From Xiphophorus maculatus (lineage: Eukaryota > Chordata > Actinopteri > Cyprinodontiformes > Poeciliidae), in assembly GCF_002775205.1 (NCBI RefSeq), contig NC_036443.1, forward strand, positions 12,205,698-12,269,697: DNA of 64,000 nucleotides, in the 5' to 3' direction. Positions 11,801-64,000 of the stretch are shown here, one piece after another (the first letter of the stretch is position 1; each line of letters begins with the position of its first letter). The notes below the pieces were generated by a model that was not told the origin of the DNA, searched no databases, and saw only the letters and a program-made list of their open reading frames with translations. The position numbers were made by a program, and so were the translations under genes.

Positions 11801-14800
11801 GTCAAGCTAAAGTTCTCCATCAGAGGTGTCTTCTAACTCCTAGATATATTCTAAATCCAGTACGCTTGAGTCAAATAGCTGAACTACCATAATGTTGACT
11901 TTGGTGCCTAACACCTTTTTTGTTTTTTGTTGGGCGGTTTTTTTCCAGGGTTCCAGCTCTGGCAGCCGATCGGAGACGTTCCGACTCCTTCACGCCAAGA
12001 ACGTTGCGAGGCCCCAACTGAAATTTAAGGAGAAAGTTGACAACAGCAATACGCCTTTCGTTCCCAAGATCTTCATCAAGCCGAATGCGCTGAAGCCACT
12101 TCCGACATGTATGCCAAGCCTTTTACCCTCATAAGTGCCGTTTTACCTTCCCGACATTTCTGAGCGGATGACGTTTCTCAAACTGCAGATTTCTCAAACA
12201 AGCAAATACGCAAAGAGAGGCCAGAGGACCTTGACGTCCCGGCTGCCTTGGCTGACTTTATCCACCAGCAGAGAACTCAGGAACATGTAGATGACATGTA
12301 AGACTTGTGCTGTTGTGTAACGTGAACATTGTTGTGCTTTGTCTCTTTGTTAATGTAACGGTTTGGCTTCATGTAGGTTTGCACATCCATACCAGTATGA
12401 ACTGGACCATCTCACCATACCAGAAAGGTTACTGTCCAAGCCGGAGCCTCAGGTAACACGGTCAGATGAAGTCATCATGTAACATAAACCCAGACCAAGC
12501 TGGAGCTTTCTTTGTGCAGCATGTTAAGACCCATCTCTAAATTACTGCTGTTGATTAGAGAAAGTTGTGGTTGGGTAAAGATTAGTCCGCTTTCTTAAAA
12601 GTTCAATTTTCTGAAACGGTTATTTTTAGTTACTCAGATGACATTTAATTATTTATTTTTGGGTGTAATTTGTAGTGGTTGGCTTCACTTCTGTCAAACC
12701 AATCCTTTTCTGTTGCTGCTGTAGATTACAGTCCTCTAAGTCTGCTAAAATAATACTTGGATTCTACTTTTGTTGTTTCTGTCGCACTTGGTCCATTTTA
12801 AGCACCTTTGCTTAAAATTTACTTAATGGGTTTTACAGGTTTAGACTCTGTAAAGTTATACAAGTGAAAATGTTCTGCTGTCCAATAAAGAAAAAAAAAA
12901 GGAAATCGTTATGTGTTCCAGATAAGACTATTCTTTAGGCAATGGAAAGTCTTTGTCCGGAAAGCTTTTGCTGAAGCTTTGTCAACGTTATTGGGGTAAA
13001 CTTTGACTTTGTTTTTCTACCTAGCTTAGGATCTGTGGTCTCTTGAGGTTTTTTTAAAGCAGCTAACAACCCATCTTTTTAAAAAAGATGACATTTAATC
13101 AATTGCAACTCCTGTTCTTTAATTATTTGATATAACACAGTGACTTCTTGACTTAAAAGTGGACTTAGCTGCATATTTTCACTGAAGACTCTGATGTTTT
13201 ATCTACCTTTTGTGTTGTAGATGTACAAGCCGATGGCCGAGACGAAGCTTTCCTTTATTGACTCACTGGAGGACCTGGTCGCTCTGAATGAGAAGCTGTG
13301 CCGATTATCTGAATTTGCAGTGGATCTCGAGGTATGCAGATGAGTTTTAATTCAAATCAAAATAAAAGGAACAGAACTCGAACCATAGAACGATACATTA
13401 TTAGGTCTTATGTGATTAATGCTTGTAGAGGTTTTTTTTTTGTCTGTTTTTTTTTTTTAATCTTTTGAACATGTTATTGTTTTGTTCTCCACGGCAGCAC
13501 CATTCCTACCGGAGCTTCCTCGGCATTACCTGCCTGATGCAGATCTCCACCAGAGAGGAGGACTTCATCATCGACACTCTGGAGCTCCGCAGCGAAATGC
13601 ACATTCTGAACGAGGCGTTCACTGACCCGACTATCGTAAAAGTAAAGAAACGACTCCATGAATGAGTTCTGCTGTATGCTGCCTGAAAGTATAAAAATAC
13701 ATGACAAAGTTGGTTTAGTTACAGCAGCTTATTACTCTTTAAGGTTTTGTTTCTTGCTATAGTTTATAGAGAATTTATCATAGAGGCTTGTATACTGCCT
13801 CAGCATATTGTTGAGAAATTGCACTGACCCCTGCTGGTCTGCCTGTTTGGAGCTGTGGGATTTAATATTTTATTTGAAAGAAGGATTAGCACAAAGCTTC
13901 AGCCCTTATTTACGTTTTTAGCATATCTGTAAATCACACACACAAAAAAAATCTGTTGGGTTAAGTCCAGGAATAGTTTTCTGCATTTACTTCCTGGTGT
14001 TTTGTGTTCTTATCGTTGTGTTTCTGAACCGCATTGTTTTATTAAACGCAGACAGCTCTCTTGGCGCAACGCTTTTAAATATTTTGGCATGTTTTATGCC
14101 AGGCCAGCTCAACAATCTGAGCAAACTGGCCTTTACCCAGACGGAGTCTTTTGTTGCTGTGAGAAATCACTTTGACTAATAATATTTGAAATATTAAAAC
14201 CAAAGTGAAACAGATCATCTTTGTAATCTTCCCAAGCTGAAAGAGCAGTCAGAAGTTGTAATTGACATTATTTTAAATATAAAGCTCTGACTTTGTGTGA
14301 TGCTCTCTGTGAGAGCAATCCTATTCAGACAAGTTTGATGAAGTTGGCAGGTGTCTTGTGATGTGTGGGAGCCAACATGATTCACACTCAGCGGGGGACA
14401 CCTTTGGAAACAGTGTGCTGCGTGGGCTCATACTGCCAGCTGAATTGCAAAAAAGGATCCAAATGGAAAATTCATCATGTAGTCTTTTTTTTTTTTTAAA
14501 CCATTCAAAATGTACTTCCTCCCTACCCCCAGGTTTTTCACGGTGCTGATTCTGACATCGAGTGGCTCCAGAGGGACTTTGGCTTGTACGTTGTCAACCT
14601 TTTTGACACCCATCAGGCGAGTCGAGCCCTGAACCTGGCCAGACATTCTCTGGACCATTTACTGAAGAACTTCTGCAACGTGAACTCGGACAAACGCTAC
14701 CAGCTGGCTGACTGGAGGATTCGGTGCGTTGACGGCTGGAACCAATTATCTATTTAAAAATTTATTTATTTTTTAAACCTAAGACATTATTACATTTTGT

Positions 14801-17800
14801 TCTTTTTAACTTACAGTTATCGTTTCTTGCAAAAGTATTCACTCCCCAAATTCTGCTGCTTACTCCAGCAGACATCAGTGTAATTTATTGGGATTTCTAT
14901 ATGATACATAAACAGAAAGTGATGATGATGTGAAGTTGTGAAAAGTGTGGCAGGCATTTGTGTTCACCGCCTTTTTCTCTCCTACCTTTAAATAAAATTC
15001 AGTGCAGATAATCATTAAGTGTTAGTTGTGCTCTCCAGAAAACTGATCTTTAATCAATAGTGACAGGAAGTAATTTATTATGTGAAGAAAACCATTGAAA
15101 GTCCAGTTTTAAAATCTATGCAGGTTTAAAAAAAATGAAGCAACTCAGTGGGACTAAATATAAAAGTGTGAATACTGTTGCAACACTCTGCATTTCAAGT
15201 TGGGAGTTTTCACATTTTTCTTCTTTAACATTACTTAAAAAGAAGAGAAGTTAAACGTACATTATGTTGCAGCCCCTTGCCAGAAGAGATGATCGAATAT
15301 GCTCGAGCGGACACGCACTATCTCCTCTACATCTACGACTGCATGCGGGCGCAGCTGTTGGAGTCGAACCACGGCCAGCCGGGCCTGTTGCAGTGCGTCT
15401 GGAACAAAAGCAAAGACGTTTCGTTCAAGGTTTGCTTCGTGTCTCGCCTCGGTTTAATCATTCAGATGCTTTCCTGTGATCCAAACTGGTGCATTTGCAT
15501 CGAAGCGATGTGTGTTGAGTATATAATTATTTAATAACTCAGTGGAGGCGTGGGTAACGGCAAGCATTAAGAGAAACAGCACAGATGACTAATTGGTATT
15601 TTCATTAGCATTTTTAAGTGTAAATTACAAACGACTCTTTTATTTTTTTTTGTTCCGTAATGTTCTTCATTACCTCCTGTCATATTTCGCCTCACCGACC
15701 TCCTCTCTCTCTACCGACAGAAATACATGAAGCCGATCTTCACAGAGGAGTCGTATTTAGAGCTGCAGAGGAAGCAGAAAAGGTCTTTTAACACCCAGCA
15801 GCTCACCACATTCAGGCTGCTGTACGCCTGGAGAGACAAGCTGGCCAGGCAGGAAGATGAAAGCACCGGGTAGGCTGTGTGAATTCACTGGACCCGCTGT
15901 TCTAGAAATGTCCCGGATCCATTTTTATATGTGAATCTACTTATTTGAGCCCACTTGCTATGACTTTTTGTTTTGTTTTGTTTTAATGGCCACTTGTTTA
16001 CTTACAGATACGTCCTCCCCACTCATATGATGATCAAAATATCCGAAGAGATGCCCAAGTAAGACCCATCCCATTTATAAAGCATTTTAATGTGTCATGT
16101 ATTTCTCTTTTTTATTAAGAGGAATTTCTTTTGTCATTTAACTCCTCAGAGAGCCGCAGGGCATCATCGCCTGCTGTAACCCCGTCCCGCCGCTGGTGAG
16201 GCAGCAGGTCAACGAGCTCCACTTGTTGGTGCAGCAGGGCAGGGAAATGCCGCTCCTGAAGGTGAGGAGAGATTGACGGCGGCGGTTTGAGCTGCCACTC
16301 ACCGCGCAGCCGGCGAGCCAGCGCCACTTCCACATTTAACTTTGGAATTATTCCACTTTATTCTCACAGGCTGAGGTGGCAGCTCAGAAGAAGAAAGGAC
16401 TCACAACCATCAAAAAGGTTGGCTGAAGACGTTTTGGTAGATAGTAACCGGTTTGGCGTTGGTTGGGTTAATAAATGATTTTCTGTATCCAGGCAGAAGT
16501 CCCGTTGTTTGGTCCACATGATACGTCCAGGGGGTCTGAGAGCAGCCACCCTCAGCTCATTGCTGATGGTAAACTTGAATGTTGCACTTTTTTTAAAAAA
16601 TCATAAGGGACTATTGTTTTCATTTAATAATTTGTCAATTTTCAGAAGTCCCAGTGAAACAAGGAATCCTGTTCTCAGAGGAGGTTTACAAAATGGACGT
16701 TGATGAGCAGAAAATAAGCTCCTTGTTAGCTCCAGCTAAAATCACCTTGTTTAAGGTAACGCCTTACAAAAGTGTTCATACCCGTTAACATTTCTTTTAC
16801 AAATTAAAAAAAAAAAGTGGCATGTGCCTTCTGAACCAGAAATTTGTAGAACTTAACATTTGGGTTTTTTTTGTTAGTTTGTTTTGTTTTATTTGATCAA
16901 AGTGGCTGAAGCAATACTCTGTTAGACATAATCAAGACATTGCTGTCCAGGGAGGTATTATAACCAAATCTAAAAGATTTCAGAGAGTGAATAGTTTTAG
17001 AAGGGAGGTAAGCTTATTCAGCTGCTCTGTTTGTAAACTGCGTTACAGTTTTTATTAGAATTCTTCTTTCTTTCAAAGGAACTGGAAACTCCTGCTGGCC
17101 AAAAATCCCTTTCCGTAGCTCAGATGAAAGCCAGGAGTATCACAGAGTCTTTTGAAAATCCTTTCAGAATGGTAAAATAAAAGAAAACATCAGGCCTCTG
17201 AATTATTTCTGACTTTCATCACACTGTTTTTAATCCTTTGGGTTTTTTTCTTCGAAACCTCAGTATCTGCCCTCCACCGGCGCGCACGTCAACAAAAACG
17301 CCAAGTTTGACCCGTCTTCAAAAATATTCGAGGTAATCCGAGCCCCTCTGCTGTGGCTGCTGTGTTTTCTTTTTTATTGAGTTGTTGTCATAGGTCTGCT
17401 TTGTTACCTGAACAGATCAGCAAGCGATGGAAACTGCAGAGTGCTGAGCAGCAGCAGAAAGAGATGGAGGTCAAGAAGAAATCAAAGGAAGAAGCAAAAC
17501 AAAAAGCAAAGAAACTGTCAGGTAAAACAGGATCTAATTATCTCTAAGGTAACTGCTTTTTTGCTGGATGTTTCTGATTTTTTTTTCTTTTCTACAGAGG
17601 AAAGAACCAAGGCTAAACAGAGCTATCAGGAGTCTCTGCGGAACATCGTCCCTGTTCGCCAGCAAGCAACAGTAAGCCATTCACTCTGCTGTCTTTTCCG
17701 CTTTACCTGGTAAAAGTTTGATGAGAAAGTTGAGTTCCATGTTGCCAGCAAGTCTGGCGCCGCATTTTAAGGAGAGCGCTTTAACAGTCAGTTTAACCCC

Positions 17801-22136: not shown

Positions 22137-25631
<3,495 letters not shown>

Positions 25632-32660: not shown

Positions 32661-32715
32661 TCATACACTCTTGTCTCCTGCTCCTGTTGCGCTTGTACTG
32701 CACTCCTGCCACAAC

Positions 32716-33343
32716 ATGCAGCTCCTGGTGGTGTTAGCAGCTCTCATGGGGGTTCTGTTCAGCGTAAGAGCAGCTGCCGTGCTTCCTCTGGAGGACAGGA
32801 GCCCCATCCATGCGAACAGGGTGAGGAAATTTAACACATGGATGATATTAATTTCTGATGGTCATTGTTATTTCTGTGAAATGTTTTAATTTCATCATTT
32901 CAAAAAGTGCTGGATAATTTTAAAAAGTAGTTAACAGAATATTAATAAGCAATTTTTTTTATAAAATAAATAGATTAAAATTGTCAGTCTCATTGCACTT
33001 CTTATTTAATCCTGTTGCTTCTTAATAGACAAACACAAAAATACTAACAGTGAAAATATAAATTTGTCTAATAATTTCTGTATTGCCTTTTGCTCTTTTT
33101 TTTTTGCCTTCTCAGGAGCTGAGTAAAGAGCGTAAAGAGCTGATCCTGAAGCTGGTGTCCGGCTTATTAGATGGAGCTCTGGACACCAACATGCTGCCTG
33201 GCGAAGCAGCTCCTGTGGACCTTGAGGAGCCGCTGGAGTCCCGCCTGGAGGAGAGGGCCGTCTACAACAGGCTATCTCTGCCTCAGCGTGACCGCAAAGC
33301 GCCCTGTAAAAACTTCTTCTGGAAAACGTTCACCTCGTGTTAA
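32716..33343 (+). CDS. cort: Somatostatin-2 / cortistatin precursor, 2 exons
   Basis: Secreted neuropeptide precursor acting on somatostatin receptors. Exons 32716-32820 and 33116-33343 (phase 0, GT-AG) give 110 aa, a normal length for this family. There is a hydrophobic signal peptide at 1-20 (MQLLVVLAALMGVLFSVRAA), then an acidic pro-region. The mature C-terminus is APCKNFFWKTFTSC (97-110) after a dibasic RK. The Pro in place of Gly at position 2 marks the [Pro2]-somatostatin-14 of fish, which is orthologous to mammalian cortistatin. A 28-residue form would start at Ala83 after a single Arg. The two cysteines of the cyclic peptide are intact. The ATG at 32716 is the only one in frame. Nearby dffa and pex14 support orthology with human CORT, which lies beside them. 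Confidence 0.96.
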
Positions 33344-44600: not shown

Positions 44601-44697
44601 ATTTTTGCTAGAATATTAATTAAAAACAACAAAGTTGGGCATTGTTTCATCATCTTCTGAGATATGAATGTCATTTTCTAGCAGAAGCAAACTTTCT

Positions 44698-44729
<32 letters not shown>

Positions 44730-44730
44730 T
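44698..44730. repeat. (TGA)n trinucleotide microsatellite
   Basis: About eleven uninterrupted TGA units occur in intergenic DNA. The poly-Asp frame it creates is not a gene. Confidence 0.9.
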
Positions 44731-45096
44731 TGATGACTTTAAATCTAAATATGCCAGGGGAATGAATAATTTTATGCCTAACGGTATCCTCTCTGGCATT
44801 TCTGTGCCAAAAATTGCACTTGTGCAGATCTGTTCTTAACACATCTGGTCCAAATAAAAACAAGGAACAAACTGGAATCAAGGAATGAACAAGGCAACGA
44901 AAAGGAAATCCAATAAGATAGATAGAAGGTGTTATGCATAGGATGAGTATTGAAATTGTGCCATTCTGAAGGCTGACAGACATTGTTCTCAGTGTAAATC
45001 AAGCTTAGACAGAACAGTGTGTTACAGAAAGAAATGGGCCTGTCATATTGCACCACAATATGTTTCTCTGTATTGAAACTAACCCAAAAAATATGT

Positions 45097-45370
45097 GGTA
45101 ACACTTTTTTTGAAGAGGTGTGCATAGTTGACTTTTAATGCAAATTTTAATGGAACTTTGCATTAAAAGTGTCACTATTTACTGACTAATACAAAGTTTA
45201 CACTTTTAAAGAACTTTTACTGCAACTTTTAGAGCACCTTTTAATTAAAAGTGTCATTATTTACTGAACAACACTTCAGGACAACAGTCGTAATCATTTA
45301 TGAGGAGTCATTCATGTTCATGACTGTCTCATATCAGTCTTATGCGCACCCATTCAAATAAAGTCTTACC
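45097..45370. mobile_element. hAT-like MITE with 8-bp target duplication
   Basis: The 274-bp element starts GGTAACACTTTTTTTGAA and ends TTCAAATAAAGTCTTACC, which are inverted repeats. It is flanked by AAATATGT at 45089-45096 and 45371-45378, a perfect 8-bp duplication typical of hAT-type insertion. Inside, ACTTTTAATGCAAA..TTTGCATTAAAAGT forms an inner inverted pair, and related words recur further right. There is no coding capacity. Confidence 0.85.
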
Positions 45371-48300: not shown

Positions 48301-50121
48301 CAAGAAAGAAAGAGTTAGTATACAGATGGGTTTACACAATTGTTTCCAAAGCAAAATTAAACTATATTGCAGCATACTAGATCAACTTATTTCAGATTGT
48401 TAAAATAGAAGAATTGCCAGAATATTATTGTTGGACTGACAAGTGACATTTAAGTCCACAAGCAATACATCTTTCTTTCCCTACAGGTCTGAGTATGTTC
48501 TCTGGTCGTGAATGTCTAAAAGTCTCAAATCTATTTAAAGTCATCAAGAATTAGAGATCGTGGTGCTGAAACAAGCTCACAAATTAAACATTTTTGCTTT
48601 TCTAATAATGTGGTTGTACTTTCAGAGCTGCGTTTTGTTAAGTCAGGGGGTGTCAATTCTGTTGATGTGTCATGCCGGATGATTAAAAGCCTCAAAAAGC
48701 TGGATGACGTCTGTGCAGAAAACATCTGCAACATGCATAGACTGCTCTGAGTCTCCAACATCCCACCAGCTCTACAATAAGGGGAGCCGAAAGATCACGC
48801 CTGAGAAAGAGTACCATCAAAAAGGTCCTTTGATATTGCAAATTAACATTGATATTCATGGGGATAATTATTGCAATTCACGTCAAATACCAGCCATTAG
48901 TGCTGCAGTGTTAGGGGAAAAAGGGGCTTTGGTTATTAAAAGCTACTTATCAGACAACTGTTGCTGGCTGAAAAGCCTTGCTTGCTACTGACTAACATCA
49001 ATATCCACGTTCCATTAAAACAGACAGGACAAACCCTCTGCAATTCCCCTATTAAAATGGCTTTCACAATAAACCTGTGGCTACAGCATTCGTCAAAGTG
49101 CAGATTTATGAGAACAAATGTACATTTTGTAGCAATCTGGTTTGATAAACCAAAAGCAACATGTTGTTTTGTACGGTTTTTAGACTTTGTAATAGTGAAT
49201 AAGTGCAAAGAAAATGCTTTACTTCAAAATGTTGCAATTAAAATGTATTAAATCGTTTTTTTGGTTGGTGAAGGGGAAGGAGGGTATTTAGTACCCTTAG
49301 AGGAACAGGATCATAATTAGTTATTGGCATGAGTCAAGTTTCATCAGCATCATATCTAAACAAGATTGACAGGGCATCAAAGTATGCAGAGGATGGTGGA
49401 TGCTTTACAGTCTATTAATACATACAAGCTTTACCCTGATAGCTTGTTTAACAGTAGATATTTGCCAAAATTCTATATTTTTTTACATCTCAATATTAAA
49501 ATAACATTTTATCTTCAGTAAAATGTAACAGAATTATGTCAGAATGTCTCAGTCTACTATATATCATAATAATTTCGTACTTTCAGTGGTGTTACATGTA
49601 CTCATCCTCACTGATTTCCAAAATCAAGCATGGGGTGCAGAAGTTCAGGTTTATTGTGGATTTTCTTTAATCAAAAATATATTTAGGGGCTCATGTATGT
49701 ACATACACCATAACTGTCAAAAAAGCCAAACAAGAACAAAGAAGTAAAATGTTGGAACACTTTTGTTGGTGTCCACAGAGAAACAGCTGATCAACCAAGG
49801 AGGTTCCATCCACATTCTTAAACTCAAACTCAAAGCAACAACTTTTTTCAAATCAAAATCTTTTTGAAACACGTTGTAGTTGTATACTGTATTACAGATT
49901 CACCACCAAAATGAAAGGATTAAAATAAATGATTAAAAGTCTAAAATGTTTATGATATTGTGTTCTATAACTGATAATTATAAATGAAGTACAGCAGGAG
50001 GAGGTTAAAAAAAAGCCTAGAATTGAACCTGAAGAGTTGTGACATCGGTCAGTTTGATAGATTTGTGTGACAGAAGAAGGTGGAGGGATGATGACACACA
50101 GATCATGTGTCTGTCTCGCTT

Positions 50122-50128
50122 TGTTTAC
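50122..50128 (+). promoter_or_regulatory. FOXA-like site upstream of the MASP2-like gene
   Basis: TGTTTAC lies about 100 bases before the start codon, in a region without a TATA box. Complement genes of this family are mostly expressed in liver, where FOXA factors act, so the site is plausible. A 7-base match alone is weak evidence. Confidence 0.3.
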
Positions 50129-50228
50129 CTAAATGTCAGCCTGCTGGGACAGCTGAGTTCATTTACCTCCCCATTAGTCAGAGTAAACTGTTCCAAAACA
50201 GGCAGCGTCTCAGGGCTGTGAAGCAAGC

Positions 50229-53200
50229 ATGACCAGGTGAGTGTCAGCTCTTCATTTTTTTTTTTTTCAGAGTGTGATCCTCCAACCTGCTTCTATCCCC
50301 CCTAATTTTCTGCAGTGGCATCTGTGTGTTTGCCCTGTCTTCCCTCCTTGGTGTCTCACTGAGTGTGGAAATGACCGGGTTATATGGCAGCTTTGCCTCC
50401 CCTGAATTCCCGCAGCCATACCCCGACAACCAGCTCGTGGTGTGGAACATAACCGCTCCGCACGGCCACCGCATCAAGCTCTACTTCACCCACTTCAGCT
50501 TGGAGCCCTCCAACCAGTGTGAGTACGACCACATCCAGGTGAGCTGCATCTAAACAAAGCCCCATTTGTGCAAACCGGAACTCCTTGCTCACCAAAGAGG
50601 CCTCTAACCCTGTCAAAACAGGTTTTGGCGGAAGGGAATGAAACCCTGCGGTTCTGTGGTGAGGAGGAAAAGAACCACGAGAGCACCCCCAGGAACACCA
50701 TCATCATGTCAGCCGGGAACGTCATGTCGGTGGTCTTTAGGAGTGACTACTCTAACGAAGGCCGATTCACTGGCTTCCAAGCGTTTTACACCTCAGAAGG
50801 TGATGTAAAAATGTGACGTTTGTTCCCAGAAGGCAAATAGGGCATCAGCAGCTATAATGAAATGCTTTAAAAGTTCATGTAGAAACAATGGGACTATTAG
50901 ATCATCTTAGGCACAGTCAGCTTTTAAGCCGTACACAACTTATGAGAAAGACTGACAGAAATACAAAAAAATGTTAAAACATGTTTGAAGAAATGTAGAT
51001 ACTCCTCCATCCACCAGTTCTCATGTCGTACCCCTTTTCTACTAAAGTGGGTCCATTCAGAAGACAAAACCCCGGCCATAAACCATAGACACTTTATCAT
51101 TTTTAATCTTACCTTTTTGCTGTTTTATATGATAAGCTCAGAGGAGCCACAGATATGTATTTAAACCTCATTACCCTGAGACCCCTCAATAAAATCTAGT
51201 GCTTTTGAAATTCCCTATCAGTAAATGGCATCCATTCAAATCTCAATATAAGGAGCTGTTCTGACCAGGCATTAAAGTAGTATTTATTTTCAATTGGCCT
51301 CCTCAAATCCAGGCTTCAAAAGTGTCCTGCAACTTTTGGATGTGTTCCTGGTTTAACACACCTCAGCCAAATGGCTGTTTGAAACAGAGACCCATCTAAA
51401 ACCTGCATGATCCCGGCCCTCGAGTCCTGAACTTGAGGTTCCCTGCCCTAGAGTGTTATATCTGTTTCTTGAGTAGATTTAGGTTTGAGGACCCGAGCTC
51501 TCGAGGTGGAGTATAAACAAGTCTGTTTAACATAAGAAGGAGCTTGACAATTCAAGGCCCGAGAAGTTAAAGTCAGGATGTTACAATGAATCCTACAGAC
51601 CCATTCAGTAAATTAGAATATTATTAAAAAGTTTATTTATTTCACTAACTCCATCATCATGTAGAAAATTGTAATTAGACAAGAACTACCTGTTTATTTC
51701 TTGTAGTCTTGGTGATTTTCTGCCAACAGCTAGTGAAGAGATGGCAACTAAAATTAGTGCACTACATCAGATCAATAAAAAAAGTTTAAAAAAAAAAGAA
51801 ATGTTGGCTTAATGAAAAGCATGTTTAATACCTGCTCAAAAGGTACTTTTAATCTGACAAATGAGACTCGGGACATATGTTCTAATTTATTGAATAGGAC
51901 TGTACAGTAAACATGTAACCACTATAAAGACATTAAGACAGTGATGTGAGATCTTCTGTTTGTCATCACTGCAGAGCTTCAGACTAACTAAAAGTTATCA
52001 AGAGCGTTTTTGTTAATGTATGTGAAAAATGTCTAGACAAGAGTTTTTCTACCATCTTGAGAAAACTAACCATGACTCTGAGCCTTCAGACAACATAATA
52101 TACACTGCTACGCTTTGAAGAGAGCAACCCGGCCAGCTGTAGCATCAAACCTCAGCTAGCTGATATTACATTATTACACTAAATAGTGCAATGGAAATAA
52201 ATTGATTGTTAGTATGGCTCATATTCTAAAGCAGTATTGGCTTACACTGCAGGGTGATGAATCCAAACAAATAGTCACAGTTGAAACAGTTAATAGACTC
52301 AAGGCACCCTCCAGGGTCACACATCTCATTAAGACAGTCTAGCATCATGCATCTTTAGAGTGAAAAGATACAAATGTACCGAGTAACGCTAAACCATCAT
52401 CCTGTGTCGGTCTCTTCCAGATATCAACGAGTGCCTATCCAGGGTGGATGGCGAGCGAGTATGTGACCATTTCTGCCACAATTACATCGGTGGCTATTAC
52501 TGCACGTGCAAGCAGGGACACCTTCTCCATGACAACAAGAGATCCTGCACAGGTAGGAGCAACCGGAGCTGAAACCCAAGAGGCGTGTTCGTTTGGGTGC
52601 AATCAAAGGAGCTCAGAAGGCTCCCAATGAGGTGTGGTGTTAAAGAGCTCGGCATGAGGGAATGACTGCATTAGTAGTTGTAAAGCAGATCAGATAAACT
52701 CACGCTGAGCCTCTCAGCCTCTTGTCTCTGTCTGAGACAAGTGGTGAAAACAAGTCCAAGTCCTCAAAATGCCTTACTAACACAACACTAAGATTTTAGG
52801 ACATTTAAAGCAAGATGAAAATGCACCTACATATAGTAGTACCTTTGTAGTACCTTACAAAGGTACCTTACAAAGGTGTAAAATCCTTTGCAGAAAATAA
52901 TGATTTGACTTTTAACATAAGACACATAGTAAGTGTAAGATGTTGGATTTTATAATGTAATAGGTGTTAATTCTAGGCTGAAAAGAAATACTGATGCATG
53001 CAGTTGCTGATCTCTGGCAGCTGGTGCTCAGTGAGGTTAATCACAGCCAATTCCTCAGGGAAGAGCAACTTTGAAATGGCTATAAAAATTGATACCTGTG
53101 TGCAGCACTTACAGCGCACCGGCACCAGGTAATTAATCACAATTACCAGCTGATGTGCCTTAAATTATTATACTTTGCCAGGGGAAAAAAACGGTGCCAC

Positions 53201-54306
53201 AACAAATCATGCAATGAATAGACAAAAATGATTATCTGCCCACAGATTGTTCTAATTATATAAATTACAGCAACTCTGCCTCTTTGCGGAAGCTCATTTG
53301 TTTTTGTCCATAACTTCATCTGCACACTTCGCCAGGGCAATAACACAGATCAAAATTAATCTAATCTTTTATGGTGCCAGTGGAGAGAGCAATTCACAAA
53401 GAAATGTTATTTTCTGTCTTTAAAAAAATCCGGCGTGACAAAACAGTTGAAGGAAGAACCCAATTTTAAGAATTCAGTATCATTCACTGAGGTTTGAACA
53501 CTGGGTATAGGGATCCTTCAAGCTCTGGAAAGGTACAGAAAGTGTTTTCTGGATTTTCCAGGTGGGTAAGATTCTTATAAACTGATGTATTTATATTCTA
53601 AAGTGTTTAGCTCTAACAGGATTTAAGGGTAAGTAAATCTGAAAAGGTGAATATTGACACAAAACATGCGTAGGAACCAACTTATGTCCTAAACAAGTGC
53701 AAATTTCACCTAATCTGTGTTTCCTCTACAGTGCCTTGCAAAAGCCAGGTGTTGACGTCAGCATCTGGAGCTCTGACTAGTCCTGGCTACCCAAACCCTT
53801 ATCCACCCATGAGCCAGTGCGATCACACCATCAGTCTGCCAGAGGGCTCCAGAATCATCCTGGACTTCTTGGAACCTTTTGACATAGAGGGACACCCTGA
53901 AGTCCCTTGTCCATATGATGTGCTAAAGGTCAGTACCGCACAATGCTAATGTAGACAAGACAATGAATAAGTAATGTATTCCTCCCCATGGCTTTAAGAC
54001 AACCTGTCACTGACTTACCCTCTGCCAGCTGATTTACTACATGCTACTGCGTTTTCTTGCATATTTGAGTTTGGCAGGGCAATGGTCAGAGACCCAATGA
54101 ATCAATCTTCTTTTTCCTTTTGGATGTTTCTTTTTTTTTTTTTTTAGATTTTAACAACTGGACAAGAGTACGGACCGTTCTGTGGCTTGGCACCACCAGA
54201 CTCTATTGATACTGGAAGTTACCAAGTGCATGTGGCGTTCAGGTCTGACTCTACTGGGAAAAACAAGGGATGGAAGATCAAATACACCAGCACCAAAGCT
54301 GAATAG
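50229..54306 (+). CDS. MASP2-family CUB1-EGF-CUB2 protein lacking the protease part
   Basis: Secreted, predicted to bind collectins and ficolins of the lectin complement pathway. Exons: 50229-50236, 50316-50538, 50622-50799, 52421-52552, 53732-53928, 54148-54306; GT-AG, phases 2,0,1,1,0; 298 aa. Signal peptide 1-19. CUB1 (about 20-136) keeps the Ca-site residues E66, D74 and D119 and one Cys pair (C71, C89). The EGF domain (137-180) has all six Cys and a DINEC Ca-binding start, with N157 in the hydroxylation motif. CUB2 is 183-296. Wording is closest to MASP2 ([26 protein letters not shown]). Where MASP genes splice on to the CCP domains, this one reads KAE then a stop, with no donor. I see no CCP or trypsin-like exon in the rest of the window. 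It resembles the short MAp/sMAP products and could be a competitive inhibitor of lectin-pathway activation. The 8-base first coding exon is the least certain part. Confidence 0.88.
51603..51895. mobile_element. Tc1-type MITE in intron 3 of the MASP2-like gene
   Basis: The ends ATTCAGTAAATTAGAA (51603-51618) and TTCTAATTTATTGAAT (51880-51895) are inverted repeats matching at 15 of 16 positions. The inner words AGAAATGTTGGCTTAATGAA and AAGTTTATTTATTTCACTAA belong to a well-known fish Tc1-like family, of which only the ends remain (293 bp). Confidence 0.75.
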
Positions 54307-54464
54307 CTTTCATAACTTCTGATAACTGATGGCTGCCTGCCTGGATAATATTTTCCTCTGCAAGTTTTAAGATATGTTATTTTTTATTACTTTATTTTGG
54401 AATTAATAATTATAAGTCTAACTTTTGTTATATTTTTCTGACTTTTTGAACCAATACATTGAAA

Positions 54465-54470
54465 ATTAAA
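54465..54470 (+). terminator. Poly(A) signal ATTAAA of the MASP2-like gene
   Basis: ATTAAA lies 159 bases after the stop codon, in AT-rich DNA. No AATAAA occurs closer. Its position directly behind the early stop supports a real short transcript. Confidence 0.5.
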
Positions 54471-54659
54471 TGCACATGACCTGCAAATTGAATTACACCT
54501 CTTAATTTTTACTTTTTTAACATATGGAGTAGTACACAACGGTTTTGAAAAAGTGGAAGCTCAGTTATTTTTGGGGTTTAAAAAATATTAAGGTGGTCAT
54601 GCATTTGTGTTTAACCCAGTTTTATGTACAATTACATCGCACAGAGGAGGACTTTATTT

Positions 54660-55047
54660 ACAGACAAGTGAGTTTTAAAGGTATTTATTCTGAGTCCGGC
54701 TGTTCTGTTCAGCTTCCTGAAGACCAGGAAACACAGCAGATAGGACCGGACTAAAGTTGTGGAGAAGTTTAAAGAAATGTTAGATTACGAAAAAAATTCT
54801 CAGAGTACTGTTCAATCCATCAGCCAATGTATGCCCATAGCTCAGGGATTTTCACCTACAAGGCAAAGGCAAAACAAGTATTTACCAGAAAAGCAGCCAA
54901 TAAATACAAAACACAATTTATCATCTTCCTTTCCTTTTACTTCCCAAATATTAACCATTTTGTGTTGGTCCACCATCAAAAATCCCCCCAAAATGTAAAG
55001 ACGTTTGTGATCAAATGTGAAAAGTTCAGGGGTTATGAGTACCTCTA
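54660..55047 (+). mobile_element. Tc1-like transposon remnant behind the MASP2-like gene
   Basis: AAAGTTGTGGAGAAGTTTAA and AGTACTGTTCAATCCATCAG match the 5' third of a teleost Tc1-like transposase. AAATGTGAAAAGTTCAGGGG..TATGAGTACC matches its right end. The middle is missing. It carries the shadow frames in this interval and lies immediately downstream of the MASP2-like 3' UTR. Confidence 0.65.
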
Positions 55048-55286
55048 CTCTTTCATGCATCATTCATTTCATTTTTACCAAGACAGTAATTATGCTCATT
55101 TTCTCTCATCTCTTTCTGCCTCTTTACAAATTGCTTGGTTCAATTTAGTGTTTTCACTTTTTATTAGACCATTCTTTTGTTGTGATTAAACAACAGATGC
55201 ACACTTCCTTAAATTCAGAAGATCTCAGCTGAACCACACACAGAATAAGATTTGTTTCCAGCACGATGTGCCGTGACAGCGCTTAC

Positions 55287-55506
55287 CTGAGCGCTCTCGA
55301 GTCACCATCTCATCCTTACAGACAGCGTGACATACGATAGCACAGTGCAGCTGACTGCTCAGATACTGCATCACGCTCGCGCCAAACCGTTCAGCCGAGG
55401 TGGAGTCAGCTTCACAGGAATTACGCACACCATGATTCCCATTAAGTACGGTAGCTGTTGGAGGAAAAAACCCCAGCAGCAGTAAGCTCAGAACTCGTGT
55501 ACTCAT
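55287..55506 (-). CDS. Unidentified exon-like open frame, minus strand
   Basis: I do not recognise this. A GC- and CpG-rich patch in AT-rich DNA carries an open frame from ATG at 55506 to a good donor (CAG|GTAAGC) at 55287, 73 codons plus one base. The first 20 or so residues (MSTRVLSLLLLGFFPPTA) look like a signal peptide, and the rest has four Cys, three close together (LHCAIVCHAVCKDE). A second reading uses an acceptor (TTTTTTCCTCCAACAG) ending at 55455, which makes 55287-55454 an internal 168-base exon of phase 1-1. No partner exon was found on either side, and the plus strand is also open over part of it. It could be a small secreted-protein gene, a decayed exon or a repeat. Confidence 0.22.
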
Positions 55507-58268
55507 GCAGAAACATACTAAACTGGTGGACAAAAATGTGAGGACAAGACAAAAACTTTAGACACATTTATTTACCAAAAGACATGTTAAAAGTCGCCGT
55601 TGCATCATATTATACAGACGTTACACCTTGATGTATCCTGGAGAACAATCTGCTTAAAAACTATTCATGAAAAAGCAATGGGTCCGCTTCACACCAAAGC
55701 TCAACTGCTTTCGCAAAGACACAATACTCACTAATTACTCTAGGACAGTTGGGAATGGAGCACGTTTTGTCTGTATTATAAAAAACACAAATTATGCAAG
55801 TAAAAATAAGTCCTTTGATTCTGTTCGGTGTTCCAGAGATAAGAGGACACAGCAGAGAACCTACTGCATGTTCATGTCACACGGACCAACACACACCGTC
55901 TTACATCACACATTCATCAGACCAACACATGACTGTCGGGATTGTATGCAAGATATACACTTAAATCATCCACAGTACATAGATAACGTGTTAATCTGGT
56001 AGTGTTATCTGGTTTCTGGCAGTGTCGTACGAGTCTGCTCAGGCAGAAGGCTGTTTATATTTTTCAGATAGAATTTGCTGTAAGAAAGAAAAGAAAACAA
56101 TTCCTTTTTAACTGATAAGTAGGAAATCTGACTAAAGAAATTTGTATGTAGCAAATGGCATCTGATTGATGCTTTTAAGTTTTGTAAAAGTTGCCCTGGA
56201 TTTTTGAGAGCATCATTGCGAATACATAAAACTTGTTCCCCAAACAAACTAAATGATGCCATTTGATTGGCCTTGAAATGGCTCCTTTAGCTCATCCAAA
56301 TCCTTAAATGCTGCATCTGATGAAACATAGAGCATATTTGTCATCATTAATGGAGGTGTTTGAAATATAGTAAATTGGCGGATTTAAAAAGGAGAAATTT
56401 GACAAACTCAGAGGAGCACTTTGTCCGTCTCTGGGAAGAAATTATATTTATTTATTTGAACAGTTTAGCAACTGATTACTATCTATGAAGCTAACTGCAA
56501 TTAGCCTAACTTAGAGAATAGACAAGGCAAAGCAGTGTTTAGGTAAACACTAACAAAATTCACCAGCTAATTGTATATCTAATACAACTGAAAGCAGAAA
56601 GTGAACACCAGAATACTCAAGATTACAAAACACAATTTCTAGATTTATTGTTAAAGAGTGACATATTTAAGGGTACCTGTGAGTGTCAAAAAGTAAAGTA
56701 TAAACCTTTTTAGAACATTTTTCAGACCAATATTATTCAAATTTAGGACAAGCATGAATAGCAAGAAATGATTTAATCCGAATTAATAAATAATGTTGCT
56801 CACTTAGCTTGGCAAGATAACCAAGCTGAAACTTGTTGTTTTTTTGCCCTAGGAAGATGACTACAATACTTTTCTACCAAGGCTTACTGCAAACAGTAAA
56901 CCTAAAACAGCAACTGACCAGAGGTTTTATACAGTTATTAAAAGCTCTGTTTCCTAACCATACATTAAGTAAACATTTGTTATTCACAGAAAAAACACGA
57001 GCTGGTAGTGGATGACGTTACATTAACTGTTTTCAGAAGCAAAAAATAAAAACAGAAAATGAACGAGTAAACAAATCTGTTATATAAACTAATGCAAATT
57101 TAAATCTGTACAGTTTTTTTTTTATTTTATTTATGTTATTAAATGTTTTGGTACCATGCAGAAACCATGTTCAGTGCCATCTAGTGGACAATATGAAGAG
57201 GTTCCGAAACAACTAAGGTATTGATTAGTTTGCTTTAAATGTGGGGGGGCTGAAGGTGCCACAATCCAGAAAATGACTCGTCAAACTTGTACATGTGATA
57301 CTTTAAATAAAATGTTAATATTTATCTGCCAGTAAGGTTTTAAATACGAAAAGCATAAAACAGAAATCATTAATTAGAGTTTAAATTCCTTGTATGTTAA
57401 ACTTTTAAGTACTTCAATATTTATTTAATTATTTCATAGTTCCCTTATCTACGGCCCATCATGACGTAATGTAAACAGTCACTTTGGCTAGACAAACATC
57501 AAGCTAAAGATGTTTGTCTTTTGCTAGAAAAACAAAAAAATACCCCAATGTGGGAATCATACTCTGATGTTAGATTGGTTAATGGACAGCAGGCCAATCA
57601 CTTTGCCTGTAGCTGAGTTAGTCCAGGCCACCGATTTAATGAGTACGGCTCACAAGTTTAAAAAACAACAACAAAAAAAACCATGTGCTGCAATTCAGGA
57701 CTATGAGATAATTATATAAATACTACAATAATTATATAAGCTTTTACCATTGAATTCAACTTTAAAAGGAAGATTAGCAGATATAATATTTCCGTAATGA
57801 TGAGTAACTATTTGATGAATACAATACCAATATTTTTTAACTGCCACATATAAATAAATATGCAAGTATTTATTTATTGTGGCACCTTTAGCTCTCGAAG
57901 TACTGGATGACATTAACTTTCAGCAAAACCACGCTTGCCTCCATTACATCTTTATATATAAGACAACTGGGAGCTAGCATGTTAATATTCATAAGCATAT
58001 GTTTGTCTATAGCTATCATCCCAACATAACCCAAATACGGAAATCAAAAAGTGGTTAAACATATTCAAACTGAACACATTTGTGCAAATCAGGCCAGGCG
58101 CTCTCCAGACCAACTTCACCGCTTTCTCAGCGTTCCAAAACCACGCAGAGATTCACATCTTCAACATTTTTAGCTGTAGCTACATAAACAGCAACACAGA
58201 GCAAATCCCATTCTCCTGACCTCGAGGCAGGTTAGTGTGAATCCTTATCAGTCTCTGCTCGGTCAAAC
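55507..58268. other. Intergenic DNA before dffa
   Basis: AT-rich sequence with short open frames that show no family resemblance. No CCP or serine-protease exon that could extend the MASP2-like gene was seen. The last 400 bases or so are probably the dffa 3' UTR. Confidence 0.55.
57869..57878 (-). terminator. dffa: Candidate poly(A) signals of dffa
   Basis: Overlapping TTTATTTATT on the plus strand gives AATAAATAAA on the minus strand, about 390 bases past the dffa stop codon. Other A/T-rich words are nearby, so the choice is tentative. Confidence 0.35.
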
Positions 58269-61200
58269 CTAGCTGCTGCCTTGGGTCGCTGTTCCCGCCC
58301 CCTCCCTGTGTTTGCTGCTGTCCTGCTGCGTGCCGCTGATGGACTGCATGGCCTGAATCTGCTGCAGGCGCGTCGACAGCTCCGCTTTGCAGGCCTGCAG
58401 CAGCGCGGCGGTCCTGCCTGCGTCCCAACCCAGCACCTGCTGCATGGCTTCCAGCCCTCTGCTCACTACAGCCTGGAAGCACACAGAGCCGAACAGAACT
58501 TCAAACAAAAGAAATCTACACGAGAGGTTTTATAACTTTACAGGATTGTGGATGCGGCAATTAAAATCTCATGAGTGGCACATAGAAAACCATTGTGTAA
58601 AGAAGTCCAGCGGTTCAAAGCCACATACGGCAGAGAGCTGACATCACCACACAAAAACACACATGGTGGAAAAACAGTTTTTCAGTAGGCGCAGTGAAGC
58701 TGGTCAGAGTTAAAGGGAAGACAAATGCGGTTCAATGCAGGGCAGTGGTGCAAAGAAAACTGTTGAGAGAGGCAAACGACTCGAAACTGGGAGGTTTCAA
58801 ATCTGCAAAGCTGGTAGACACATGTGTCAAGAGAGTCAAAGGTGGTTGTAACGTCAAACCATGGGAAAATGTTTAGAAGGTATCAGTACCCTTGCCAGCC
58901 TCTGTAGTCTCTTTAAGGTATTTTTACACATCAGACTCAGTGGGCTCGCTGGTATTAATGTGCGCCCTGAGCAACAAGCGCACCGCTCAAAGTTGGGGTG
59001 TGAAACGATTGCCTCAATTTTTCCCCTATCAGTGTGCTTCCAGGACCACAGGCCAACTCAGCCTGCTGATGAATAATAAGCTGTTTTTCCTCCAGACGGT
59101 TCAGTCTCCCCTGGCGATTAATCAGGCATTTTGAACACTAGTGGCCAGCTGCATGAGAACAAATAAAGTTTTTGAATTGCTTTAAATTATAGGTTGGTTA
59201 ACACATATATACCAGTTATATATATACTATACAACTGGTTGTGGACAGACCAGGGCTTAACATTATGTGCATGTTTTTATAAGCTATAAAAATACAAATT
59301 GCATAAAAAACTCCTTGCACCAGATAGAATGAGACAATAAAAATAGGACATAGAGTTCACAAAACAGCTGGATTGTGCTTTTGTTGCAAGTTTCTGCTTA
59401 AGTATACTAAATCAGTGGCTTTGTAGAGGTCTGGAGTTTCTGATAAAGGTGTTTTTATTTTATTGTATTTAGATAATTTAAGCCGTTATAGAGCAGTGGT
59501 GAGAGAAGAATACCTGCAAATCCTCAGTGGAGAGTCTGGTCTCTGGGCTGGTTTTGCCTTTCAGGACCATTAGTGTCCTGGACATGAACTCGGACGCAGA
59601 ATCCACCTCCACTCCATCCGGCATATCCACATCTCCAGCACCTGACATATTGAAACAGGTTTTCTCTTATATTCAGTATAGATTGTGGTAAATTGGTTGA
59701 AATATTAGGGATTATTGAGGAACTGCAATGACTCCATCTAGTGACCAAAGGGTAAGAGTGCAACAAGGCACCATGAGCAATCAAAATGTGAAGAAAGTAA
59801 GTACATTTGATCTCTGAAATATCATCTAGAAAATTACCCGTAAAAAAAATTAATTTTCTCCTTTATATTGTTGTCTCTTAATTTTTTTTCCCAGACTATA
59901 ATCATACTGAAATCAAATCCCAGAGTGCATAGGAACCTGTAAACAACACATTTTTCTTCACTAAATCAGAATGCTGCAGAAGATTTTACTGAAAATTGCA
60001 GAAAGGTTTCTGTTAAACATCTTTATCTCAAATGAAATACAAGATTCTTATTCTGCTGAAAAGGGAAAAGAAATATTTCAAACTATTAAACCACTTTCCT
60101 CAATGAGACAAGGATACAATTCCATAGATCATCATTTACAATAACCTTTTCCATGTAGGCAGAATAAAAATACATTTTAAAAAAGCAGTAACTACACATT
60201 GCCTTACCGTCCTGACTAGAAGGACTTGTGGCTCCCTGCTGTCTGTCCTCGTTCTCCACAGCTTTGAGGTACAACTGGAGCAGCTCTTTGGACTGCCTTT
60301 CCTCCTCTCTGCGATCTAAAACCCTCTGCAGCGTCTCCTGAAGTTCCTCTGCCTTCTTCTCTTGGAAGCCCAGGGCAGAGGCTAGTTCAGAGCACGGCGC
60401 CTCTACTAAAGACTGGGAGAGGAAAGTACAACATTCTCTTTAAATGTCAGTTATGTGAAAGTATGAACAAATGAAAACTGTACCTGCTTGAACCATCCAA
60501 CACCTTAAAATGGCAAAGAAGAACTATTGGAATGTGTGTTTTTTTTATGTGGCCTTATTTCTAATCTGCAACACAGGATTCTAAAGTGAAACAGTGAAAT
60601 CCTGCCCATACCTGTAGGTCTCCCTCAGACATGAGAATGATACTGGTCAGGTCTTGCTTCAGCTGCAGCGCCAGATTCCACCACGGCGCCTCAATAACGT
60701 TGGAGTCGACGACATCAGTTTCCAGAACCACAGACTCTCTCGCCATCCAAGCCGTGCCGCCATCAACTGTAATAACAGCGAAGAGAGCAACAAAACACAT
60801 AAAATGTGCATTCCCTCCCTCATCAGAGTAACAATCCAGGGTTATGATCATTCAACCTGCTTACTCTTGCGAGCTGGAGCCCACGTTTCTTTGTCATGCA
60901 GCAGCATGAACATGGTGTTAAAAGGCAAACACAAAAAGTAGGCTTGATCCTCTACTATGGTCCCATCACCCTCAAGGACCACAGTGACCGGGTCTGAGGG
61001 GTTCACTCCCAGAAACTCACATCCTGTTGGAGGGAGAGCAGTTTTAAGTTAACAGATAATGAACTAAATAGCATGTCCACCTAAGTAATTCCGAAACAAT
61101 CTAGTCATAACACCATAGGAATTGTAATCGAGAAACTCTACAATGTCAACCAAAAGTATTTATTCCCCTTCGACTTGCACATTTGTCAACTATTTTTAGT

Positions 61201-61856
61201 GAGAGTTTATGCAATAAATCCACAAAAAAGGCAGATTTTTGGAGTGTCTCATACGTCAGCAGTGACATTTACACTTGTCACTTGTTTTTCACAAAGCAGA
61301 CTGCTATTCAAAGGCCGAACGGCAACAGCTGACAGCATGCGGAACCCAAATAAATCAAATGCCTTTGATGGGCAGAGGCTGCATGACTTCAGTGAAAAGG
61401 GCCTGGTGACTAGCTCTCTAGGAATGAACACAAACAGAGGACTGATTTCTAAGTTTTAAGATTCGCAGGTTCGAACACGACTGAAATCGACTTGTTTCTG
61501 CACACAGAAACAAGTCGTGAGTGATCATGATTGATAAGCAAGCTTAAACCGAGCAGTGAAGGCACCACGGGTCTTCATCATATCTTCATCATAACTGTCT
61601 TTCCTTTCACTTCCACGTTGTCTCTCATCTGAGGGGCAAACCAAAACGGAAATGGACAAAAACAGTAAGTGGAACTACATGAAACTAATCCAAATGTCAC
61701 CTAACACAACCTGTTCGTTTTAATTATAGTTCCTCGGAGGTGCTTAACTCATGCCAACTTACCTTTTTTCTTCAGATCATCCAACGTGGGAACAACCACT
61801 CCGTATGATTTCTGCCGTGTGAAGTTACACACTTTGCAGGATCTCCCGTCTGTCAT
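58269..61856 (-). CDS. dffa: DNA fragmentation factor subunit alpha (ICAD/DFF45), 6 exons
   Basis: Chaperone and inhibitor of the apoptotic nuclease DFFB/CAD; caspase cleavage releases the nuclease. Exons in transcript order: 61763-61856, 60865-61023, 60613-60766 (60612 by phase), 60208-60412, 59514-59641, 58269-58472; GT-AG, 314 aa (human 331). The CIDE-N domain covers about residues 5-83 and includes EGDGTIVEDQAYFLCLP. The middle carries IDGGTAW (85-91) and the helical segment LTSIILMSEGDLQ. The C-terminal part has the conserved LGWDAGRTAALLQACKAEL helix pair. Two likely caspase sites line up with the human DETD and DAVD sites: LETD (99-102) and DMPD (210-213). The start ATG at 61856 gives a shorter N-terminus than the human one. 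The gene is head-to-head with pex14, as in human. Confidence 0.94.
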
Positions 61857-62369
61857 TATAAGCCTCAAGCTTTGAGTCCTGTACTGATTGTGAGTTTTCA
61901 ACCTAGAAACCACGAAACTGCAGTCCGACGCTTTCAGCTAATGTACTTCTGCCTTTTCGAATGCGGAACCACCACTTGAGCGCTATGAATGCTGGGATGT
62001 GAAGTTTTTACAAGAAAACGAGAAAATAATGTTGCAAAAAAACCCAACAACAACAACAAAAACAGTCAATCAAGATTACATTTGTTTTTACATACTCGTG
62101 TCTTGAAAAAGAGACAAGATCAGCTAAATTACAAACACCTTGTGTTACTTTATACTTTATGTTTGAGAGAAACGATGACAGCACACAAACATGCAAAAGC
62201 TACAGTTTACATACACATTTTTACAGTATTTTAGCAGCCAAGACTCTGATAGGACTCATGTAAGGGCTAAAATACAGTAAGCATTTATTTGAACGTTATA
62301 AACAAGAAGAGCCATCTTCAGGAAAAGCAATCGAGCGTGATACCGTCGACCTATCGGGGGGCTGGGAAG
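61857..62369. promoter_or_regulatory. Shared dffa-pex14 head-to-head promoter region
   Basis: Only 513 bases separate the two start codons, which point away from each other. There is no TATA box at a suitable place. The parts nearest each gene carry some CpG, while the middle is A-rich. A bidirectional promoter is likely because the pair is also divergent in human. Confidence 0.6.
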
Positions 62370-62405
62370 ATGGCATCCACCGAGCAACCTGATCCACCAA
62401 CACAG
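62370..62405 (+). CDS. pex14: Peroxin-14, first coding exon only (partial)
   Basis: Peroxisomal membrane docking protein for the PEX5 import receptor. This exon codes 12 residues, MASTEQPDPPTQ, and then a donor CAG|GT. Human PEX14 begins MASSEQAEQPSQ, so both wording and length agree. The conserved receptor-binding and membrane parts lie in later exons beyond the window. With so short a match the call rests equally on its place next to dffa in the divergent arrangement known from human. Confidence 0.82.
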
Positions 62406-62556
62406 GTCTTTCTTTGTCTATCACCCAACATTTACCTCATGTCCTCCAGATATCTTTGGGAGCTCTTCGAAATTGCTTCTAATTGTTGCTTTTACGCATT
62501 AGCCCTTTTAGCGGCTACTTCAGTAACTGCTCAGCTAATGGATGCTAGCATGCTTG

Positions 62557-62576
62557 CTAGCTAGCATGCTAGCTAG
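62557..62576. repeat. 20-bp perfect palindrome in pex14 intron 1
   Basis: CTAGCTAGCATGCTAGCTAG equals its own reverse complement. The 25 bases before it repeat the GCTAGCATGC word, giving a small cluster of nested palindromes 150 bases after the start codon. Confidence 0.9.
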
Positions 62577-63910: not shown

Positions 63911-64000
63911 TTAACTGTGTAATTAGAACTGAAGGTATATTTAGTTTTTGTAGAGGATTTTTCATACACAATTAGGGCAACACACTCAGTAAAAAACTAG

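What the first reader, a model, noticed from the sequence alone, without database searches (positions are those of the whole stretch)
50229..54306. A MASP2-family gene that stops after CUB2, with no protease domain in the window
Seen: six exons code signal peptide, CUB1, EGF and CUB2 with all structural Cys and Ca-site residues intact. They end KAE-stop where MASP genes splice on to CCP1, and a poly(A) signal follows. Known: in mammals short products (MAp19, MAp44) arise by alternative splicing of full MASP genes, and protease-less MASP-related proteins are, as I recall, reported in carp. Inference: here the short form is a gene on its own, fixed in the genome, and likely a collectin/ficolin-binding competitor of lectin-pathway proteases.
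Basis: partly seen in the sequence, partly recalled or inferred. Interest (0 to 1): 0.72.

Follow-up and report, generated by a model that had tools for sequence, protein, structure and literature searches.

The report
Fish gene for protease-less complement regulator
This is a fish gene for a short blood protein called MAp34, already known from tilapia and tongue sole, which keeps the lectin-binding front half of a complement protease but has no protease; what this stretch adds is that it appears to be a gene of its own, not a splice form.

Summary
Six exons (50229-54306, +) encode a 298-residue signal peptide-CUB1-EGF-CUB2 protein that stops right after CUB2. All 12 conserved cysteines are kept; 8 of 9 published Ca2+ ligands are identical, the ninth is Ser to Thr. 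Pfam scans of most of the surroundings (8 calls) and tblastn of the whole window found no CCP or protease exon, while the same methods find the CUB and EGF exons. DFFA, on the other strand, converges on the gene.

It is not a new kind of protein. It matches teleost MAp34, published from tongue sole and Nile tilapia; three coding-region tilapia primers match at 22/24, 17/19 and 17/20 bases, while the end primers do not match. The tilapia paper calls MAp34 a splice product of MASP-2; here it looks like a separate gene. The order EXOSC10-SRM-(CORT)-MAp34 recalls mouse Exosc10-Srm-Masp2, but sequence alone puts it equally far from MASP1/3 and MASP2. Whether this fish has a full MASP2 elsewhere is untested: the genome search did not complete. 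Published function conflicts: inhibitor in tilapia, promoter in tongue sole.

The parts
50229..50236 (+). exon 1, start codon and first 8 coding bases (signal peptide)
   Evidence: GT donor matching 9 of 9 consensus positions; joins in frame to exon 2
50316..50538 (+). exon 2, signal peptide and first half of CUB1
   Evidence: AG/GT borders; tblastn with rat MASP-2, E 3.3e-23 for exons 2 and 3 together; tilapia primer EMAp34-F matches 22/24
50622..50799 (+). exon 3, second half of CUB1
   Evidence: AG/GT borders; tilapia primer qMAp34-F (17/19) spans the exon 2/3 junction and qMAp34-R (17/20) lies in exon 3
52421..52552 (+). exon 4, calcium-binding EGF
   Evidence: tblastn E 3e-15; Pfam EGF_CA 3e-6 in the spliced protein
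53732..53928 (+). exon 5, first part of CUB2
   Evidence: tblastn E 1.9e-21; AG/GT borders
54148..54306 (+). exon 6, terminal: end of CUB2, last residues STKAE and stop codon TAG
   Evidence: tblastn E 1e-11; no GT from 54270 to 54363
54465..54470 (+). ATTAAA, likely poly(A) signal
   Evidence: motif 159 bases after the stop; inferred
58269..61844 (-). DFFA gene, convergent downstream neighbour (CIDE-N and DFF-C exons)
   Evidence: Pfam: DFF-C 1.2e-28 and 2.9e-25, CIDE-N 4.3e-14, covering 60209-61027; a further CIDE-N piece at 61758-61844 (1.1e-4) is just below Pfam's cut-off (coordinates are my arithmetic). The last two exons, at 59478-59666 and 58269-58529, are assigned by eye against recalled human DFFA.
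33287..33340 (+). cortistatin/somatostatin-type peptide (PCKNFFWKTFTSC), upstream neighbour
   Evidence: Pfam Somatostatin 1.7e-11
22155..23771 (+). SRM (spermidine synthase) exons, upstream neighbour
   Evidence: Pfam Spermine_synth 2e-33 and Spermine_synt_N 1.4e-10 (coordinates are my arithmetic)
14500..15867 (+). EXOSC10 exons (3'-5' exonuclease and HRDC), upstream neighbour
   Evidence: Pfam DNA_pol_A_exo1 3.1e-20 and 4.7e-7; HRDC 0.0049, below Pfam's cut-off; the gene name is my reading

Best explanation
The locus is the MAp34 gene of a fish, probably a percomorph: a stand-alone gene in the MASP2 neighbourhood whose product is a secreted CUB1-EGF-CUB2 protein. Exon 6 carries no splice donor between CUB2 and the stop, reads a few codons past CUB2 into that stop, and is followed by its own poly(A) signal, so the protein has no CCP or protease domain (shown on the DNA; transcripts not seen). 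The protein most likely forms the antiparallel MASP-type dimer and docks through the Ca2+ sites of its CUB domains onto the lysine of the collagen stems of MBL or related collectins (residues shown, binding inferred). There it occupies the sites of the MASP proteases and lowers lectin-pathway activation (shown for the tilapia protein, inferred here). The confidence given is for the gene being a stand-alone MAp34; for the competitor role I put about 0.65.
For: Gene model and frame. CUB-EGF-CUB match to MASP structures. 12 of 12 conserved Cys, 8 of 9 Ca2+ ligands identical plus one Ser to Thr. Domain layout (EGF 137-179, CUB2 from 183) equals that of tongue sole CsMAP34 (EGF 137-180, CUB2 183-295). 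Three coding-region primers from the tilapia MAp34 paper match exon 2, the 2/3 junction and exon 3; of 20 codons compared 14 are the same, 4 differ silently and 2 change the residue. No Sushi or Trypsin family in any of 8 Pfam frame scans. tblastn with human MASP-2 CCP1-CCP2-protease finds nothing better than E 0.018, a hit with a stop in it that overlaps DFFA in another frame, while the CUB-EGF-CUB probe finds exons 2-6. DFFA converges. Tilapia MAp34 binds MBL, displaces MASP-1 and lowers C3 deposition.
Against: No transcript was seen. The tilapia paper calls MAp34 a splice product of MASP-2. Tongue sole MAP34 promoted complement and recruited MASP1. Four of the eight MAp34 primers tried (tilapia 5' end, both tilapia 3' primers, tongue sole 3' primer) do not match above the shuffled-primer level, so the tails or UTRs differ. 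Half CCP exons are short and could be missed by Pfam; in the frame scan even the EGF exon stayed below Pfam's curated cut-offs. Two donor-like sites (6 of 9 consensus positions) lie inside exon 6 at 54226 and 54243; use of them would cut into CUB2.
Confidence: 0.8

Rival explanations
1. The six exons are the front part of a full-length MASP2 gene, and MAp34 is an alternative 3' end or splice product, as the tilapia paper says.
For: Stated in PMC7435015; mammalian MAp19 and MAp44 arise that way.
Against: No CCP or protease exon found in the window; DFFA converges downstream and a possible PEX14 first exon follows (frame, by eye). The word exon does not occur in the tilapia paper's main text, so I saw no gene structure there.
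Confidence: 0.08
2. MAp34 works as a recruiter: bound to microbe-loaded MBL it brings MASP1 in and promotes the lectin pathway. (This is a rival on function only; the gene would be the same.)
For: Tongue sole data: MASP1 bound MBL only with MAP34 present, MAP34 raised haemolysis and killing, and antibody to it lowered complement activity.
Against: Tilapia data show the reverse; human MAp44 is held to inhibit (discussion of that paper). The tongue sole protein carried Trx and His tags; I did not look up the tilapia construct.
Confidence: 0.25
3. A decayed pseudogene of masp2 in which only the first six exons have not yet broken down.
For: The gene lacks the protease half relative to MASP2, if it is the MASP2 orthologue (synteny).
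Against: Intact 298-codon frame, all 5 intron borders canonical, conserved Cys kept; the same kind of protein is expressed and infection-induced in two other fish (abstracts).
Confidence: 0.03
4. Assembly error: the CCP and protease exons were dropped or placed elsewhere.
For: Cannot be excluded without the reads or the rest of the genome.
Against: No N in 64 kb; a three-domain product of this kind was cloned in tilapia and in tongue sole.
Confidence: 0.04

Closest known systems
Nile tilapia MAp34 (OnMAp34, PMC7435015)
   Same: Signal peptide of 19 residues, CUB1, EGF, CUB2, stop; the expression primer reads VEMTGLYG, as here; the three coding-region primers match at 85-92%.
   Different: 305 residues against 298; 5' and 3' end primers do not match; described as a splice product, whereas here it looks like a gene of its own.
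Tongue sole CsMAP34 (PMC5180248)
   Same: Same domain layout at nearly the same residue numbers; 304 residues.
   Different: 9 residues after its CUB2 end (295) against 3 here; reported to promote, not inhibit, complement. One of two primers matches weakly, the other not.
Mammalian MAp19 and MAp44
   Same: Protease-less short forms of MASP genes that bind MBL and ficolins.
   Different: Both are alternative products of full MASP genes. MAp19 ends after EGF; MAp44 runs on through CCP1 with its own tail.
Carp truncated MASP / MASP-related protein (recalled; no paper text seen)
   Same: Protease-less MASP-like protein in a teleost.
   Different: Not compared; no sequence available here, and a search for a paper on it gave none.
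Hammerhead shark MASP2 transcript without protease domain (PMC6795676, passages only)
   Same: MASP2-type transcript lacking the protease.
   Different: Could be an incomplete transcript; no gene structure seen.

Membership tests
Teleost MAp34 | Secreted CUB1-EGF-CUB2 and nothing further | tested here: met
   (on the DNA; no transcript or protein seen)
Teleost MAp34 | Orthology to OnMAp34 / CsMAP34 | tested here: met
   3 coding primers of OnMAp34 match 22/24, 17/19, 17/20 against maxima of 16, 14, 15 in 20 shuffles each; CsMAP34F2 15/20 against 14 (weak). The other 4 of 8 primers (5' and 3' ends) do not rise above their shuffles (restriction-site tails trimmed by hand).
Teleost MAp34 | Expressed, and binds MBL | not testable with these tools
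   published for tilapia and tongue sole only
MASP2 (orthologue) | Conserved neighbours EXOSC10 and SRM, same order and strand | tested here: met
   against the mouse table in PMC10376023 (passages); but CORT lies between SRM and this gene, and DFFA, not Tardbp, follows
MASP2 (orthologue) | Groups with MASP2 in a tree | tested here: inconclusive
   49.2% to rat MASP-2, 49.6% to MASP-1/3; support 0/35, none of 4 topologies rejected
MASP protease | CCP1-CCP2-serine protease | tested here: not met
MAp44 / MAp19 | Alternative product of a gene that also encodes a protease | tested here: not met
   no protease exons found within the window; beyond 64 kb not testable

The most novel reading that the evidence does not exclude
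In percomorph fish the MASP2 locus has been reduced to MAp34, or MAp34 is an old MASP2 paralogue with its own place between CORT and DFFA. In the first version these fish have no MASP-2 protease, so C4 and C2 cleavage must rest on MASP1-gene proteases, with the former MASP-2 gene kept only as a regulator. Hints: the tongue sole paper lists five sequences named MASP, in two clusters of accession numbers, though one of the cluster that holds MAP34 is not described and could be a full MASP2; and the gene is as far from MASP2 as from MASP1. Against the first version: the tilapia authors speak of an OnMASP-2 gene. Other teleosts do have a MASP2: carp MASP2 is reported to act on C4, and a yellow catfish masp2 is described with CCP and protease domains.
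Probability: 0.3. Interest if true: 0.6.

Novelty: new member of a known kind. Interest (0 to 1): 0.32.

Why it matters
MAp34 is described in print as a splice form of MASP-2. If it is a separate gene, it can be knocked out without touching a protease, which would help settle whether it inhibits or promotes the lectin pathway, a point on which the two published fish studies disagree. It would also raise the question of which protease cleaves C4 in these fish.

Tried and rejected
Rejected: full MASP2 with exons inside the window (frame-wise Pfam and tblastn). Rejected: assembly gap inside the window (no N). The tree of 6 proteins could not decide between MASP2 and MASP1/3 kinship. The tblastn hit at 60243-60446 (-), E 0.018, was set aside: it overlaps a DFFA exon in another frame and holds a stop; the other 9 of 10 rows have E 0.49 or more. 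Weak Pfam matches below the curated cut-offs were set aside: Ubiquitin_4 0.11, FeThRed_A 6.7e-4, DUF6141 0.72 and DUF7420 0.099. NCBIfam gave nothing for 2 of 2 proteins. A PDB search with a minus-strand frame of the cortistatin exon was a wrong turn and found nothing. Idea considered and left open: an inversion breakpoint inside masp2 joined its front half to DFFA; against it, the order cortistatin then MASP on one strand resembles SST-MASP1 on human chromosome 3 (recalled), so the arrangement may be old.

Not scanned by Pfam: - strand 50201-54306 and below 30600, + strand below 15300 (except chosen ORFs on either strand), and + 44601-44699. tblastn (composition correction off) covered the whole window on both strands.

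Full report
Observation. Six exons on the + strand (50229-50236, 50316-50538, 50622-50799, 52421-52552, 53732-53928, 54148-54306) join with canonical borders at all five introns into an 897-base frame of 298 codons plus TAG. The product is a signal peptide, CUB1, a calcium-type EGF and CUB2, ending ...[12 protein letters not shown]. It matches solved CUB1-EGF-CUB2 chains: human MASP-3 (3dem, 330.4 bits), rat MASP-1 (5ckq, 328.5) and rat MASP-2 (1nt0, 314.6) (species of 3dem and 1nt0, of 5ckq recalled). The 12 columns in which at least 4 of the 6 compared proteins have Cys are all Cys here. Of the nine Ca2+ ligand positions given by Nan et al. (PMC5300068; outline with abstract and passages seen), eight are identical and the ninth is Ser to Thr, as in C1s.

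The end of the gene. The stop comes 6 residues after the end of the Pfam CUB match and 3 after the CUB2 end given for tongue sole MAP34. No GT occurs from 54270 to 54363, so there is no donor between CUB2 and the stop. The next four GTs (54364 to 54427) reach fewer than 6 of 9 consensus positions. Donor-like sites do exist inside exon 6 (54226 and 54243, 6 of 9 each) and beyond the stop and the ATTAAA at 54465 (54593, 54668 and 54681 with 6, 8 and 7 of 9). The former would cut into CUB2, the latter lie outside the reading frame. There are no Ns in the window.

Search for the missing half. Reading frames with stops shown as X were scanned with Pfam: + strand 15300-64000 in five calls (27, 32, 35, 55, 56; 99 bases at 44601-44699 left out) and - strand 30600-50200 and 54307-64000 in three calls. 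None of the eight gave a Sushi or Trypsin family (E up to 10, up to 1 in the others). As a control, the same method found the CUB exons at 8.1e-34 and the EGF exon at 1.2e-4 (EGF_CA) and 1.6e-5 (FXa_inhibition); the last two are below Pfam's curated cut-offs. tblastn with the human MASP-2 CCP1-CCP2-protease chain over the whole window gave 10 rows, the best at E 0.018 (overlapping DFFA in another frame, with a stop), the rest 0.49 or worse. The CUB-EGF-CUB probe found exons 2 to 6 at 1e-11 to 3e-23. Half CCP exons could still be missed.

Neighbours. EXOSC10 exons at 14.5-15.9 kb (+), SRM at 22.2-23.8 kb (+), a cortistatin-type peptide at 33.3 kb (+), then this gene (+), then DFFA (-). Pfam places DFFA at 60.2-61.8 kb; two more exons down to 58.27 kb are my reading, which would put about 4 kb between the two stop codons. 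A frame holding MASTEQPDPP at about 62.4 kb (+) may be the first exon of PEX14 (by eye and recall; no Pfam or NCBIfam support). In mouse the order is Exosc10(+) Srm(+) Masp2(+) Tardbp(-), with Pex14(-) Dffa(+) Cort(-) further on (table in PMC10376023, passages seen). So this gene sits where MASP2 is expected next to EXOSC10 and SRM, except that CORT lies between, and DFFA, not TARDBP, follows. Sequence alone does not decide: identity over 266 shared columns is 49.6% to MASP-1/3, 49.2% to rat MASP-2, 43.2% to C1r and 39.8% to C1s, and none of four topologies is rejected (AU 0.29 to 0.66).

What it is. Two papers describe the same kind of protein in percomorph fish (lineages). CsMAP34 of tongue sole has 304 residues, EGF 137-180 and CUB2 183-295 (PMC5180248; abstract, passages and sections 4, 13, 20, 35 seen). 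OnMAp34 of Nile tilapia has 305 residues (PMC7435015; abstract, passages and sections 7, 21, 28, 29, 30 seen). Of six tilapia MAp34 primers (restriction-site tails trimmed), the three in the coding interior match the spliced window gene (22/24, 17/19 across the exon 2/3 junction, 17/20; best of 20 shuffles 16, 14, 15). The three end primers do not rise above their shuffles. Of the two tongue sole primers, one matches weakly (15/20 against 14) and one does not. In the 20 tilapia codons compared, 14 are identical, 4 differ silently and 2 change the residue. I conclude that this is the MAp34 gene of a related fish, probably a percomorph (inference).

Splice form or gene. The tilapia paper says MAp34 is an alternative splice product of MASP-2. 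Its main text does not contain the word exon, so I found no gene-structure evidence there. In this window the gene ends by itself and the next gene converges on it. That speaks for a separate gene, at least here. I found no statement of this in the parts of papers that I saw; the ten searches were made, in an open-access library only.

How it works. In MASPs, a Ca2+ site in CUB2, with a like site in CUB1, contacts a lysine of the MBL collagen stem, and CUB1-EGF pairs form an antiparallel dimer (PMC5300068, passages). The Ca2+ residues are present here, one as Thr instead of Ser. Tilapia MAp34 bound MBL, competed with MASP-1 and lowered C3 deposition. Tongue sole MAP34 instead recruited MASP1 and raised complement activity. 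I favour competition at about 0.65, against recruitment at 0.25.

What stays open. The window's own genome could not be searched, so a full-length masp2 elsewhere is neither shown nor excluded. Other teleosts have one: carp MASP2 is said to act on C4 (passage in PMC5180248), and a yellow catfish masp2 is described as like masp1 (CCP and protease) but with one CUB domain (PMC7959794, passages). PMC11312191 lists zebrafish and eel MASP2 in a figure legend (passages); I saw no percomorph MASP of any kind in that legend, so it says nothing about percomorphs. A further lead is a hammerhead shark MASP2 transcript without protease domain (PMC6795676, passages). PMC7768046, on fish complement genes, has no occurrence of MASP. 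Two other papers gave only background: PMC10855846 (passages) and PMC5237311 (passages, which names TARDBP, MASP2, SRM, EXOSC10 and MTOR as the vertebrate angptl7 neighbourhood; its figure was not available).

Noticed in passing
window 33062-33340 (+): A cortistatin/somatostatin-type precursor ends in PCKNFFWKTFTSC and lies between SRM and the MAp34 gene on the same strand. This resembles SST near MASP1 on human chromosome 3 (recalled), as if the MASP genes and the somatostatin genes were old neighbours.
   Followed up: partly
window 58269-61844 (-): DFFA converges on MAp34. In mouse, Dffa lies between Pex14 and Cort, about 0.5 Mb from Masp2, so the gene order around MASP2 differs between this fish and mouse.
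   Followed up: partly
window 33.4-50.2 kb: About 17 kb between cortistatin and MAp34 with no Pfam match above its cut-off on the + strand (99 bases left out) or the - strand. Two weak matches to families of unknown function (E 0.099 and 0.72) lie near 38.4-38.6 kb (-).
   Followed up: no
window 54286-54306: The tail after CUB2 differs in length from tongue sole MAP34 (9 residues after position 295 there, 3 here), and the published 3' primers do not match, as expected if the tail is former intron sequence.
   Followed up: partly
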